Source of the DNA: Acidobacteriota bacterium
GTDB taxonomy: Bacteria > Acidobacteriota > Vicinamibacteria > Vicinamibacterales > UBA8438
Length of the DNA: 64,000 bases
Direction of reading: 5' to 3'
NCBI GenBank assembly: GCA_009861545.1
Contig: VXME01000070.1
Span: forward strand, 1 to 64,000
Both the position numbers and the translations under genes were made by a program. The notes under the pieces are model-generated. The model had not been told where the DNA came from. It did no database searches and saw only the letters and a program-made list of their open reading frames with translations. Below, in pieces: positions 1-10,367 of this stretch (positions within the stretch are counted from its first letter, which is position 1; every line of letters begins with the position of its first letter).

Positions 1-1302
1 CGAACCGGCCGATCGCGTCCTCGCCAACCGGCAAAAATAATTGTCGTTGATCACCTGAGCAGCTATGTCACGACACTCTGCGAGAACATAGAGCGGAACC
101 TGCACATCCTGTGTACAGCGGAGGAGCGCGAAGCGATTGCCGTTTCCACGGTCCATAAGGAGGCTCTCGCGCTGGTTCGGAAGGTACACCCGCGGATGTT
201 TCCGGCGACGGAAGCAGATGTTCGAGAATGCGTCGAAACCCTGCGCCTTCGTCACGCGCCCGAGTACGACGCCGGGTTCGTCCGCGGGGAGTGGGACAAC
301 GTCGTGCGCCTGCAGGGGATTGGCCGCTGGGAGGAGTACCGTAGCGCCCAGCGCACTGGACGCGGGCGCGGCCTGGGGATCAAGGAACGACGTCGGCTCT
401 GGCAAGTGTTCGGGGGAACGCTCGACAACTTTGAGGGCCGGGACCTGTTGGACTGGTCCGGGTTGTGTCAACGAGGGTTGGAGCTGCTGACCGATGGCAG
501 CGTCCGCAGTCCGTACACCGCAGTAGTCGTCGACGAAGTCCAGGATCTCACTCCACCGGAGCTTCGTTTTCTAAAGGCGTTGTGCAGCGTCCAGCCTGGC
601 AACCTGCTTCTTTGCGGCGACACTGGGCAGCGCATCTACCCTGGAGGGTTCAGCCTCAGGACGCTGGGCATCGAGGTCCGCGGGCGGGCCTCGGTGCTGC
701 GCATCAACTACCGCACGACGGAGCAGATCCGACGCTGCGCTGATCGCATCCTGGGCGCCGTCACTGACGATATGGACGGCGGGGACGAACAGCGGGCCGG
801 CACACGGAGTCTCCTTCGCGGCCCGGAGCCACGCTTCGCGGGTCATCCGACCCGCGAGGACGAGATCACCGCTGCCGTTGCGACGGTCCGTGCCTGGGTG
901 GCGGATGGCTTGGCGCCGGAGGCTGTCGGGATCTTCGCGCGTACAAACAAGCGTCTCGACGATTTGTGCGAGGCCTTTGACAAGACTGGCGTGTCGTGGC
1001 ATCGCCTGTCCGACAGAGACGCAGCGGGTGAAGGCAAGGTGCATCTCGGCACGATGCATCGGGCCAAGGGACTCGAGTTCAAGGCAGTTCTCGTCTTGGG
1101 TTGCGGCGACGCAGAGGTTCCGAGTCGCGCCGCCCTGCGTTCTGCCGATGACCCTCAGGATCGCGAGGCCGCAGAAGCCCGGGAGCGGCGTTTGCTGTAC
1201 GTCGCGATCACTCGCGCCCGAGACGAAGTGGCTGTTTTCTGGACAGGAACACCGAGTCGTTTTCTCGATCCGCTCATTGGTACCAAGGAAACCGGCGCGT
1301 GA
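1..1302 (+). CDS. UvrD-like superfamily 1 DNA helicase, 5' end outside window
   Basis: The frame is open from base 1, so only the last 433 codons are present. Visible SF1 motifs are the Walker B box VVVDEVQD (around residues 175-182), LLLCGDTGQRIYPGG (motif III region), LRINYRTTEQIRR (motif IV), the GTMHRAKGLEF box near residue 350 and LLYVAITRARDEV (motif VI) near residue 400. These make it an ATP-dependent 3'-5' helicase/translocase of the UvrD/Rep type. The Walker A part, and any N-terminal nuclease such as NERD, would lie upstream. Its stop codon overlaps the GTG start of the next helicase by four bases, so the two are probably translationally coupled and work in one complex or pathway. 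Placement in a defence operon is inferred from the neighbours. Confidence 0.9.
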   Translation, partial: RTGRSRPRQPAKIIVVDHLSSYVTTLCENIERNLHILCTAEEREAIAVSTVHKEALALVRKVHPRMFPATEADVRECVETLRLRHAPEYDAGFVRGEWDNVVRLQGIGRWEEYRSAQRTGRGRGLGIKERRRLWQVFGGTLDNFEGRDLLDWSGLCQRGLELLTDGSVRSPYTAVVVDEVQDLTPPELRFLKALCSVQPGNLLLCGDTGQRIYPGGFSLRTLGIEVRGRASVLRINYRTTEQIRRCADRILGAVTDDMDGGDEQRAGTRSLLRGPEPRFAGHPTREDEITAAVATVRAWVADGLAPEAVGIFARTNKRLDDLCEAFDKTGVSWHRLSDRDAAGEGKVHLGTMHRAKGLEFKAVLVLGCGDAEVPSRAALRSADDPQDREAAEARERRLLYVAITRARDEVAVFWTGTPSRFLDPLIGTKETGA

Positions 1303-4135
1303 GTTTCGATGTTGGCGCGCTCGTCAGGGCGCGGGGGCGCGAGTGGGTCGTTCTGCCCCAGAACCGCGATGACCCGGACACGCTCATCTTGCGTCCCTTG
1401 GGTGGCACTGAGCACGAAGTCACGGGCATCTACTTGCCCTTGGAGCGCGTCGAGCCGGCGCAGTTCGACTTGCCCGACCCGGCGACAGATCTGGGCAACC
1501 ACCTGTCATTCAGCCTGTTGCGGGACGCCGTGCGCCTGGGATTTCGCGCTGGTGCAGGGCCGTTTCGATCGCTCGCCCGCATCGCGGTTGAGCCCCGCCC
1601 GTACCAGCTTGTGCCGCTTCTCATGGCGCTCCGGCTCGATCCTGTCCGCCTGCTGATCGCCGACGACGTCGGAGTCGGGAAGACCGTGGAGGCGTGCCTC
1701 GTGGCGCGCGAACTCGTTGACCGATGTGAGGTCGACGGTTTGTGCGTACTCTGTCCACCGCATCTTGCCGAGCAGTGGCAAGCGTCGCTGGCAGGGCAGT
1801 TTCACCTCGATGCCGAACTCGTACTAGCCGGCACGGCTGCCCGCCTCGAGCGGACCTGTCGGCAAGACGAGTCTCTCTTCGACCGTTACCCGTTCACTGT
1901 TGTTTCCACCGACTACATCAAGAGTGAACGCCGTCGCGACGAGTTCCTGCGAGCCTGTCCTGATCTCGTGATCGTCGACGAGGCACACACTTGCGCCACT
2001 GCGACGACCCTTTCTTCTGGGCAGCAGCGGCACGAGTTGCTGCAGGCCCTCGTCCGGCCGGACACGAGAGGCGGCGCATCTCGTCACCTCGTGCTTGTCA
2101 CTGCGACCCCGCACAGCGGGAACGAAGAGACCTTCCGTTCTCTGCTTGTGCTGTTGGACAATCGATTCGCCGATCTGCCTGCCGACCTGTCCGGGGAGCA
2201 GAACCGGGGGCACCGTGAGGCGCTTGCACGACATTTCGTGCAGCGGCGACGGGGTGATCTCAAGGCGTACCTTGACACGGTGACGCCGTTTCCGACCCGC
2301 GAGATCGCCGAGGAGCATTACACGCTCACGCCGCGGTATCGCGAGTTTCTCGATCGAGTACTGGGCTATTGCCGTGAGAGTGTGCTCGACAAGTCGCTGG
2401 AAAGGCGGCGCCAGCGCGTCCGCTGGTGGTCAGCGCTGGCGCTTCTCCGAGCCCTGGCCTCCAGTCCGGCGGCGGCCGCAGCAACCCTGCGTAACCGTTC
2501 AGTAGCGGAGGATGCAGAGACCATCGAGCAGGTCGACGAGGAAGGACGGCGCGCGGTGCTCGATCTCGATGAGGACCTAACCGAGGCGATCGATGTGGTG
2601 TCGGGCTGCGAGTCCGAGGAAGACGCTGATCGCGATAGGGGACGACTCATGCGACTCGCCCGTGAGGCCGATGAGCTCGCCGGGGAGGGCGATGCCAAAC
2701 TCTCGCGCGCCTTGGAACTCGTCCGGGATCTGCTTGATGACGGGTACGCGCCGATCGTCTTTTGCCGTTTTGTGCCGACTGTCGACTACGTGGCGGCGTT
2801 CCTCCGCGCCAGACTCGAACGCAGGGGCGTCGTGGTTGAGGCTGTTACTGGCCGGTTGCCTCCCGAGGAACGGAAACGTCGTGTGGAAGCTCTCGGGGCT
2901 CACGAAGGCCGTATCCTCGTGTGTACGGACTGCCTGAGCGAGGGTATCAACCTACAGGATGCCTTCGACGCGGTGATGCACTACGACTTGTCGTGGAATC
3001 CGACTCGCCATGAACAGCGCGAGGGTCGCGTGGACCGCTATGGGCAGAATCGCTCGACCGTGCGGACTCTCACCTACTACGGCCAGAACAATCCGGTCGA
3101 CGGCATCGTACTGCAGGTTCTGCTCCGGAAGCACAAGACCATCCACGAGCGCCTCGGTGTCATCGTGCCCGTGCCGATGGACACCCGAATCATTGAAGAC
3201 GCCGTCCTCGAAGGGCTACTGATGCGTGAGGCCGATACCACGCAGCTTTCGTTCGACTTCCTTGAACCGCTTCATCGAGACGTCGACGGGCAGTGGGACG
3301 CGGCCGTCGAGCGGGAGAAGCGGAGCCGGACCCTGTTCGCGCAGAACCAGATCCTCCGGCTGGTGAACACAGAGGTGCGAGTCGAGCTCGATGAGCTACG
3401 CCGAGCGATTGGAAGCGGCGCAGACGTGCGAAGGTTCACGGCCACGGCGTTACGAACGCTTGGCGCTCAGGTGTCCGGCAATGAACCAATGCAGGTCGAC
3501 ATGCGCGAGACGACCCGCGCCCTACGGGACGCGATCGGCGAAGAAGGACGCTTTGTGGCGGTCTTCTCCGGGGCGCCGGAGCGCGACGCGCACCGCCTCA
3601 CCAGAACCCACCCGATCGTCGAGGGTTTGGCCGCTCACGTGCTTGAAATCGCGCTCGATAGGACGCGGAACGGCTTGGGGTTGCGGTGTGGCGTGGTTCG
3701 GACGAACGCGGTGCAACGACGTACCACGCTCGTCCTTCTGCGCGTCCGGTTCCACATCGTCAATCGGGGACGGGACGATGCGGAGCGTCCACTGCTTGCG
3801 GAGGAACTTGCCCTGGCAGGCTTTCGCGGCAGCCCGGACCACGCAGACTGGCTCGCGCCGGATGACATCGAGCCATTCCTCGATGTCGGCGCAGACGCCA
3901 ACATCGGCGCCGATCAGGCGCAGACTCATATCCAACGCGTGCTGGATCGCCTCGATGCCCTCAGGCCGAGACTAGACGCAATCGCCGAGGAGCGCGGGCG
4001 TGCGCTCTTCGACGCGCACCGCCGAGTCCGGCGGGCGACCCGGAGCGGCGTCCGAGCGTTGAGGGTCGACGTGCACACACCTCCCGACGTTCTCGGCGTC
4101 TATATGCTGCTTCCGGTAGTCGCGGGAGGGCACGG

Positions 4136-4139
<4 letters not shown>
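1299..4139 (+). CDS. SNF2-family helicase of DrmD/BrxHII type
   Basis: This 946-residue protein has the SNF2/SF2 motif set: Walker A ADDVGVGKTVEA (residues 121-132), the DEAH box LVIVDEAH (223-230), LVTATPHSGNEETF (motif III, about 267-279), ILVCTDCLSEGINLQ (motif V, about 535-550) and HEQREGRVDRYGQ (motif VI, about 571-583). Length and motif wording match the helicases of DISARM (DrmD) and BREX type 3 (BrxHII), which translocate on DNA beside an adenine methyltransferase. The GTG start at 1299 lies inside the upstream stop (GTGA), and the end overlaps the next ATG (ATGA), so the three genes form a tight operon. Family assignment is firm. Membership of a named system is not, because no drmA, drmB, drmC or pglZ is visible. 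Confidence 0.88.
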
Positions 4140-8077
<3,938 letters not shown>

Positions 8078-8233
8078 AGCGACCTTCGCAGCCTGCTGCT
8101 TCGGCTCAGGAACGTGGTGCGGTTCCAACGCCAGGGCATGAACTCCGGCGTTAAGGAGGCCCGACCGCCCAGACCGAGCGTTGAGCCACTTCGTTTTTTT
8201 GGGAAACATCTCCACCGGTCTCCTCGGGTGGTA

Positions 8234-8239
8234 TATAAT
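8234..8239 (+). promoter_or_regulatory. Perfect -10 box TATAAT upstream of the KAP gene
   Basis: TATAAT lies in an AT-rich patch inside otherwise GC-rich DNA, 157 bases after the methyltransferase stop. No convincing -35 hexamer is seen 16-18 bases upstream. If used, transcription would begin near 8246. That would favour the GTG at 8298 as the KAP start codon over the ATG at 8238, which overlaps the box. Confidence 0.45.
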
Positions 8240-10367
8240 GACGTGCTTACGCCGAGCGAGTGCAGATACAACGATTACCAATTCCGAGCAACGAGTCGTG
8301 GCTGTTCCAGCAGACAATCCAATTCGTGAAGCCAAAGAGGACCTCCTTGAGCGAGCCTCCACCGCGCGATCTTTTGCGGAGCACATCCTTGAGATTGATT
8401 CACGTCAAGGACTGGTCGTCGGCGTCTTGGGGCCTTGGGGCGCGGGCAAGACATCATTCGTTAACCTCGCACGATCTCATCTGAAGGGCCTCGGCATAGA
8501 TGTACTTGAGTTCAATCCATGGATGTTTAGCGGTGCCGAGCAGCTGGTGAGTTCCTTCTTCTCAGAACTGTCAGCCCAGATGAAGCTACGCCCCAATCTC
8601 GCTACCCTTGGCGAGAATCTCGCCGCGTACGGTGATTTTCTGGCGGAGCTAGGATGGCTGCCCGTCTTCGGTCCGTGGCTCGACCGCCTCCGTGTGATTG
8701 CGAAGTTCCTGGCCAAGCAGTCCAAGGGGCGGGGTGGGACCGTCGCCAGTCATCGGGAGAAGATACAAACAGCCCTAGCCGCACTCAATCAACCGATCGT
8801 AGTCGTGCTCGATGACATTGACCGGCTTAGTACTCGGGAAATCCGGGATATGTTTAAGCTTGTACGCTTAACAGCAAATTTTTCGAACATCGTATACATT
8901 GTTTCTTTTGATCGCATCAGGATTGAAGAGGCACTTGCCGAGCACAAGATTCCAGGGCGCGCCTATATCGAGAAAATTTTGCAGTTTGCTGTCGATCTTC
9001 CGGAGGTGCCGGAAGACGTTCTCATCAGGAACACATCGAACGCAATCGATGAAGTCGTTTCCCCGGTCAAGCAGCCAGGCTCGTTCGATGAGACCGCTTG
9101 GCCGGACGTGCTCATGGAAGTCATTCGTCCTTTGATCAGGAATATAAGGGACGTCCGCCGTTACGCGCTCTCCGTACATGTTACGGTGCGTCAACTCGGT
9201 GGCCAAGTAGACCTCGTCGATGTTCTAGCCCTCGATGCGATTCGAGTTTTCTTGCCAGATGTATTTCGCTTCATGCACGGCTCAGTCAACGCCCTTACTA
9301 TGACGTCTGACGAGTATGCAAGAAACCCCGGCCCCGCCGAGCACTTCAAGAAGCGCATTGACCTGTTGCTAGAAATAGCTGAAGAACACGCGGCGGTCGT
9401 GAGAGCAATGATCCAGCGGTTGTTTCCTGCAGCGCAATGTCACGTCGGCGGCCCGCACTATGGGAGTGATTGGAAGACTCAGTGGCTACAGAACCGCCGC
9501 GTTGCTCATGAGTACGTGCTTCGGCTTTATCTCGAACGAGTTGTTGGGGAAGGCCTCGAGTCCTTTATGCAGGCGGAACACGCATGGGCCTGTATGGCCG
9601 ACCAGCAAGCCCTTGACACCTACTTGCGGTCGCTAGACCCAAAGCGTTTGCACGCTGTCATACACTCGCTCGAAACGTACGAGGGACAGTTCGCTCGTGA
9701 GCATGTCGTCCCCGGATCTGTTGTCTTGCTCAACCTGATGCCGGATCTGCCTGAACGGCCGAAGGGCATGTTCGAACTCGACAGTAGCGTCTACGTAACG
9801 CGGGTGGTTTACCGCCTCCTGCGCTCAATTCGGGACGGCGAACAGATTGCGCAAGTAGCGCAGAGTATCTTGCGCGAACTCAGAACACTGTCAGCAAAGC
9901 TGGAACTCATTGACATCGTAGGGCATCGCGAGAATGTAGGTCACAAACTGGTGTCCGAACCGGCAGCGCGTGCACTGGAGCGCGCGTGGCGCGACGAAGT
10001 TCGGTCAGCGTCAGCAGATGCGATACGGCGGGAAGCGGACCCTCTCAGGATCTTGCGACTGGCGAAAGGAGGATTGTTGCCGCCCGAGCCGGACGTTATA
10101 ATCCCCGATACGGCACAGATGACTCTTGCACTATTGAGAGCGGGGCGTTGCGAAGTGCGACAGCAGGCGGTGGGAAGTCGCGCGATAACTCGGTCTTCTC
10201 GTCTTGCTTGGGATGTGCTGGTTGGCGTGTACGGGGACGAGGACACCTTGAAGACGCGGATCGGAGCAATAAGGGCTTCGTGTCCGGAGGATTCTAAAGA
10301 CCTGCTGGACTTGGCGGACAAGTATCTTTCCGGCTGGCAGCCTGACGACATAAGCGAGGACAATTAA
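8238..10367 (+). CDS. KAP-family P-loop NTPase
   Basis: A KAP NTPase with Walker A GPWGAGKTSF near residue 65 and Walker B VVVLDDIDRL near residue 190. The family's FNPWMFSG motif lies between them, and a long helical C-terminal region follows. KAP NTPases are membrane-associated or cytosolic ATPases that recur in phage defence (for example QatA of QatABCD). No strong paired membrane helices are seen here. The start is uncertain: TTG 8181 and ATG 8238 are in frame, and GTG 8298 gives a protein beginning just before the typical ADNPI segment. Base composition (runs such as aaatttttcgaac) is clearly less GC-rich than the neighbours, suggesting separate acquisition. No qatB, qatC or qatD partner follows; the next gene is on the other strand. 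Confidence 0.85.
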   Translation: MTCLRRASADTTITNSEQRVVAVPADNPIREAKEDLLERASTARSFAEHILEIDSRQGLVVGVLGPWGAGKTSFVNLARSHLKGLGIDVLEFNPWMFSGAEQLVSSFFSELSAQMKLRPNLATLGENLAAYGDFLAELGWLPVFGPWLDRLRVIAKFLAKQSKGRGGTVASHREKIQTALAALNQPIVVVLDDIDRLSTREIRDMFKLVRLTANFSNIVYIVSFDRIRIEEALAEHKIPGRAYIEKILQFAVDLPEVPEDVLIRNTSNAIDEVVSPVKQPGSFDETAWPDVLMEVIRPLIRNIRDVRRYALSVHVTVRQLGGQVDLVDVLALDAIRVFLPDVFRFMHGSVNALTMTSDEYARNPGPAEHFKKRIDLLLEIAEEHAAVVRAMIQRLFPAAQCHVGGPHYGSDWKTQWLQNRRVAHEYVLRLYLERVVGEGLESFMQAEHAWACMADQQALDTYLRSLDPKRLHAVIHSLETYEGQFAREHVVPGSVVLLNLMPDLPERPKGMFELDSSVYVTRVVYRLLRSIRDGEQIAQVAQSILRELRTLSAKLELIDIVGHRENVGHKLVSEPAARALERAWRDEVRSASADAIRREADPLRILRLAKGGLLPPEPDVIIPDTAQMTLALLRAGRCEVRQQAVGSRAITRSSRLAWDVLVGVYGDEDTLKTRIGAIRASCPEDSKDLLDLADKYLSGWQPDDISEDN

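What the first reader, a model, noticed from the sequence alone, without database searches (positions are those of the whole stretch)
1..10367. Defence-type island pairing a UvrD helicase, a DrmD/BrxHII-like helicase, a large adenine methyltransferase and a KAP NTPase
Seen: three genes joined by 4-base start/stop overlaps (1299-1302 and 4136-4139), followed by a KAP NTPase with its own -10 box. Known: SNF2 helicase plus PglX-like methyltransferase is the drmD-drmMI pair of class 1 DISARM, and brxHII-pglX occurs in BREX type 3. Here drmA, drmB, drmC, pglZ and brxC are not next to it; a UvrD helicase takes the upstream slot and a KAP NTPase the downstream one. Inference: this may be a distinct methylation-guarded helicase system in which SF1 and SF2 helicases act together on unmodified invading DNA.
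Basis: partly seen in the sequence, partly recalled or inferred. Interest (0 to 1): 0.78.

Follow-up and report, generated by a model that had tools for sequence, protein, structure and literature searches.

The report
Broken ARMADA operon with extra helicase
This is the surviving end of a recently described bacterial anti-phage operon (ARMADA), in an uncommon version with an extra RelE-UvrD helicase gene; here that gene is cut by an insertion sequence, so the system is probably dead in this genome, and the neighbouring KAP ATPase is not part of it.

Summary
The three overlapping genes are real: a UvrD helicase tail, a SNF2 helicase (1299-4139) and an adenine methyltransferase (4136-8077). The UvrD gene is only a fragment. 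The contig starts at window base 1, the first 53 bases are the end of an IS21-family element, and the RelE-like domain and Walker A motif are missing. Related loci show the intact operon: YprA/DruE-like helicase, RelE-UvrD, SNF2, PglX-like methyltransferase. That gene set is ARMADA (Bell et al. 2025, PMC12458937). By phylogeny the SNF2 gene lies inside ARMADA type I, described as YprA-SNF2-methyltransferase without UvrD. Its RelE-UvrD belongs to a different lineage from type II ArmD (joint clade rejected, p about 1e-44), so it was probably recruited separately. A YprA fragment on contig C125 has the same sister relationships as the window genes and is probably the other broken end of this operon; about 4.6 kb between them is absent from the assembly. 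No KAP gene was found in 80 related loci, 59 of them with at least 2.5 kb downstream, so KAP is most likely an independent neighbour. The class is already known; the four-gene type I layout is a variant.

The parts
1..53 (+). End of an IS21-family insertion sequence at the contig edge; the apparent start of the UvrD frame is read through it
   Evidence: Exact 53-base repeat at seven contig ends of the same genome; 51 bases at 98% to the end of an element with IstA- and IstB-like genes in a genome of the same genus (L212)
54..1302 (+). armD fragment: C-terminal part of a RelE-UvrD helicase; RelE-like domain and Walker A missing
   Evidence: UvrD_C; alignment to full-length relatives starts after Walker A; tree
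1299..4139 (+). armA: BrxHII/RapA-like SNF2 helicase, helicase motifs present
   Evidence: phylogeny inside ARMADA type I
4136..8077 (+). armB: PglX/DrmMI-like adenine methyltransferase, DPACGSGHF and NPPW motifs present
   Evidence: homologues downstream of armA in related loci
8181..10367 (+). KAP P-loop NTPase (PifA-like): neighbour, probably not a component of the operon; true start uncertain
   Evidence: Pfam KAP_NTPase 148 bits, PADLOC PifA 188 bits; no KAP match in the related loci

Best explanation
The window holds the 3' part of a type I ARMADA defence operon of an uncommon four-gene layout: armC (YprA/DruE-like helicase), armD (RelE-UvrD), armA (SNF2), armB (methyltransferase). In its intact form, ArmB most likely marks host DNA with N6-methyladenine; ArmA, ArmC and ArmD load on and process invading DNA that lacks the mark or exposes replication-type structures, and the nuclease domain reported at the ArmC C-terminus cuts it (inferred from the published type II system and from DruE biochemistry). 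In this genome an IS21-family element lies inside armD, and another multi-copy repeat ends an armC fragment on contig C125. The system is therefore probably inactive for restriction, while armA and armB are intact and the methyltransferase could still act. Shown: gene content, truncation of armD, phylogenetic placement, recurrence. Inferred: function, inactivity, and the physical link of C125 to this contig.
For: Intact operons C-D-A-B in L057 and L058 and in L084 and L086 (in L084 two extra genes lie between armD and armA), D-A-B at a contig edge in L091. The upstream gene is DruE-like with DEAD, Helicase_C and MrfA Zn-binding domains. The armD N-terminal domain matches solved RelE/YoeB toxins as its five best hits (E 0.0016 to 0.36). 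ArmA tree: window with L084 and L086 (100), nested in type I. ArmD tree: window with L086 (96/90) in a type I clade (99/98); joint clade with type II rejected, p 1e-44. The C125 armC fragment groups with L086 (98/89) and L084 (100/97), the same triple. Truncation. Published requirement of all four genes and of the ArmD Walker A in E. coli type II: PMC12458937.
Against: The adjacency of C125 and C70 is not shown; about 4.6 kb between them is missing from the assembly and could be a deletion or an unassembled or discarded contig. Type I ARMADA has no experiment in the main text read; the mechanism is borrowed from type II and Druantia III.
Confidence: 0.85

Rival explanations
1. A distinct, undescribed methylation-guarded system made of UvrD, SNF2, methyltransferase and KAP.
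For: The four genes lie together in this window; DrmD, DpdE and PglX curated cut-offs are not met.
Against: All four complete relatives with the UvrD gene have a YprA/DruE-like gene upstream; no KAP match in the related loci; the gene set matches ARMADA.
Confidence: 0.04
2. The RelE-UvrD gene is a passenger in a type I ARMADA operon with no functional link to it.
For: Most type I relatives sampled lack it: 59 loci with armC directly upstream of armA against 3 with armD.
Against: It recurs between armC and armA in five further loci, mostly with overlapping start/stop codons; its tree agrees with the ArmA and ArmC trees for window, L086 and L084; in type II a homologous protein is essential.
Confidence: 0.1
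3. The operon is intact in the organism and only the assembly is broken at repeats.
For: Both breaks coincide with contig ends in multi-copy repeats, where short-read assemblies stop.
Against: In both cases the homology ends where the repeat begins, as expected for insertion inside the genes; an intact gene would not contain the repeat end.
Confidence: 0.08

Closest known systems
ARMADA type I (Bell et al. 2025, PMC12458937)
   Same: YprA-like, SNF2 (BrxHII-like) and PglX-like genes, YprA first; ArmA falls within this clade
   Different: An additional RelE-UvrD gene lies between armC and armA, not mentioned for type I in the main text; in this genome armD, and probably armC, are broken
ARMADA type II (tested in E. 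coli; here plasmid NZ_CP026578)
   Same: Same four protein kinds, including RelE-UvrD
   Different: Order A-B-C-D; ArmA and ArmD come from distant lineages
DISARM class 1
   Same: DrmD and DrmMI are near relatives of the SNF2 and methyltransferase proteins
   Different: DrmD cut-off not met; in the relatives YprA helicase and DUF1998 region are one protein, and no DrmC was identified
Druantia (DruE)
   Same: The upstream helicase of the relatives is DruE-like (331 bits)
   Different: SNF2 and methyltransferase partners instead of DruH, DruMFG or DruABCD; the ArmC fragment is far from the DruE1-like row
BPTD_3080 type III-like restriction-modification with RelE-UvrD
   Same: A RelE-UvrD gene follows a restriction-methyltransferase pair, also in this genome on C76
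   Different: Unrelated methyltransferase and restriction subunits; its UvrD is in another clade

Membership tests
[quoted passage not shown]
ARMADA type I | YprA-like helicase gene first in the operon | tested here: inconclusive
   Present in all complete C-D-A-B relatives; in this genome only a fragment on another contig that groups with them
ARMADA type I | Phylogenetic position in the type I clade | tested here: met
   ArmA tree, sets supported at 100, 95 and 99; one E. coli type II row on a very long branch. The published clade is defined on YprA, for which only the C125 fragment is available
ARMADA type I | C-terminal Vsr-type nuclease on ArmC | not testable with these tools
   That part of armC is absent from the assembly
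ARMADA type II | Strict order A-B-C-D with ArmD last | tested here: not met
   ArmD fragment lies upstream of ArmA; ArmD not in the type II clade
DISARM class 1 | DrmD equivalog | tested here: not met
   298 bits against a curated cut-off of 610
Dpd | DpdE equivalog | tested here: not met
   NCBIfam 164 bits against 500, although one PADLOC model named DpdE scores 769
BREX | PglX equivalog | tested here: not met
   Best 50 bits against 400
BREX | pglZ and brxC nearby | not tested
   Not searched for by model

The most novel reading that the evidence does not exclude
Type I ARMADA acquired its own RelE-UvrD helicase separately from type II, so the same four-part set was assembled twice in different gene orders; RelE-UvrD would then be a portable module attached repeatedly to methyltransferase-helicase restriction systems.
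Probability: 0.6. Interest if true: 0.5.

Novelty: new variant of a known kind. Interest (0 to 1): 0.38.

Why it matters
If the four-gene type I layout is functional, it links the two ARMADA types and points to the RelE-UvrD protein as a recurrent module: it occurs in ARMADA I, ARMADA II, type III-like restriction systems and BrxL-containing loci of Thermus and Meiothermus. It also shows how an interrupted operon at a contig edge can be read as a new defence system.

Tried and rejected
KAP as a fifth component: no recurrence; the KAP profile was built from the single window sequence, so very distant KAP proteins could be missed. DISARM, Dpd and BREX membership: rejected by curated cut-offs. 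UvrD N-terminal half elsewhere in the genome: only paralogues on C76 and C124. C125 repeat as the other end of the same insertion sequence: its end does not resemble the IS21 end, so treated as a different element; its family was not established. First armC tree had one row (L009) extracted in the wrong orientation; it was rebuilt with the correct sequence and without the long type II row, and the grouping held. No structure prediction was run.

Full report
Observation. The frames at 1-1302, 1299-4139, 4136-8077 and 8181-10367 are present, with overlaps GTGA at 1299-1302 and ATGA at 4136-4139. Pfam gives UvrD C-terminal, SNF2/Helicase_C, Eco57I/N6 methylase and KAP NTPase domains.

The UvrD gene is broken. 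The window begins at base 1 of contig C70. The first 53 bases recur exactly at seven contig ends. In a genome of the same genus the sequence ends an element with IstA- and IstB-like genes; the names IstA and IstB rest on my reading of the translations, not on a family search. Alignment to full-length relatives starts after Walker A, and no Walker A motif is found in the frame. The part missing here is, in relatives, a RelE-like domain plus the Walker A region. A profile of that domain finds RelE and YoeB toxins first among solved structures, with modest E-values.

What the operon was. A phylum-wide search with the UvrD fragment and a scan with the SNF2 alignment led to loci with YprA/DruE-like helicase, RelE-UvrD, SNF2 and methyltransferase in that order: L057, L058, L084, L086, and L091 cut at a contig edge. 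The upstream helicase is DruE-like. Of 80 named loci, 59 have armC directly upstream of armA, 3 have armD there, 7 have the order A-B-C, and 11 are undetermined. The gene set is ARMADA (PMC12458937). That paper describes type I as C-A-B and type II as A-B-C-D with a RelE-UvrD. Its supplements could not be read, so the four-gene type I layout may be listed there.

Phylogeny. The window SNF2 protein groups with L084 and L086 (100) inside the type I clade, far from the E. coli type II protein. The ArmD tree places the window fragment with L086 and L084 in a clade of type I loci. Type II ArmD, represented by E. coli and three loci whose neighbouring genes are of the type II kind, lies apart, and a joint clade is rejected. 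The root is at the midpoint, so separate recruitment is the likeliest but not the only reading.

Other half in this genome. An armC fragment on C125 (549 residues) ends at a repeat shared by four contig ends and groups with L086 and L084 (which replaces). Three gene trees give the same triple, which supports one operon split by mobile elements. The rest of armC and the start of armD are not in the assembly. The figure of about 4.6 kb missing is an estimate from the layout of L086.

KAP. No KAP match appeared in the loci searched, 59 of which have at least 2.5 kb downstream of armB. Several loci hold other ATPases there: OLD-like AAA plus TOPRIM in L084, PHP-SMC in L057, LmuB-like in C169. The window KAP is PifA-like, perhaps a stand-alone defence gene; this was not tested.

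Mechanism. Inferred from type II, where all four genes and the ArmD Walker A were required and protection was non-abortive, and from DruE of Druantia III, a helicase-nuclease that loads on 3' single-stranded DNA (PMC13192584). The missing Walker A in the window fragment therefore predicts loss of defence.

Verdict. A disrupted ARMADA type I operon of an uncommon four-gene layout: a new variant of a known kind, with moderate interest.

Noticed in passing
L009 3274-18001 and L030 (contig C169 of the same genome): A second, apparently intact three-gene ARMADA type I operon (armC-armA-armB, no RelE-UvrD) followed by a LmuB-like ATPase gene.
   Followed up: partly
L073 4888-11332, minus strand (contig C125): A ZacA-ZacB-ZacC set (397, 533 and 1070 bits) upstream of the armC fragment.
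   Followed up: partly
L061 140-10974 (contig C76): A BPTD_3080 type III-like restriction-methyltransferase pair followed by a RelE-UvrD gene read in two overlapping frames, possibly frameshifted.
   Followed up: partly
L064 2706-16313: A DruE1-like helicase (703 bits) next to a RelE-UvrD, with ZacB-like and SNF2 genes: another mixed island.
   Followed up: no
L084 7888-9887: In Nannocystis pusilla, ParA-like and SIR2-like genes lie between armD and armA.
   Followed up: no
L164 4878-17348: Deinococcus radiodurans plasmid MP1 carries helicase, SNF2 and methyltransferase genes in type I order, the methyltransferase annotated as two genes with an IS630 element just downstream.
   Followed up: no
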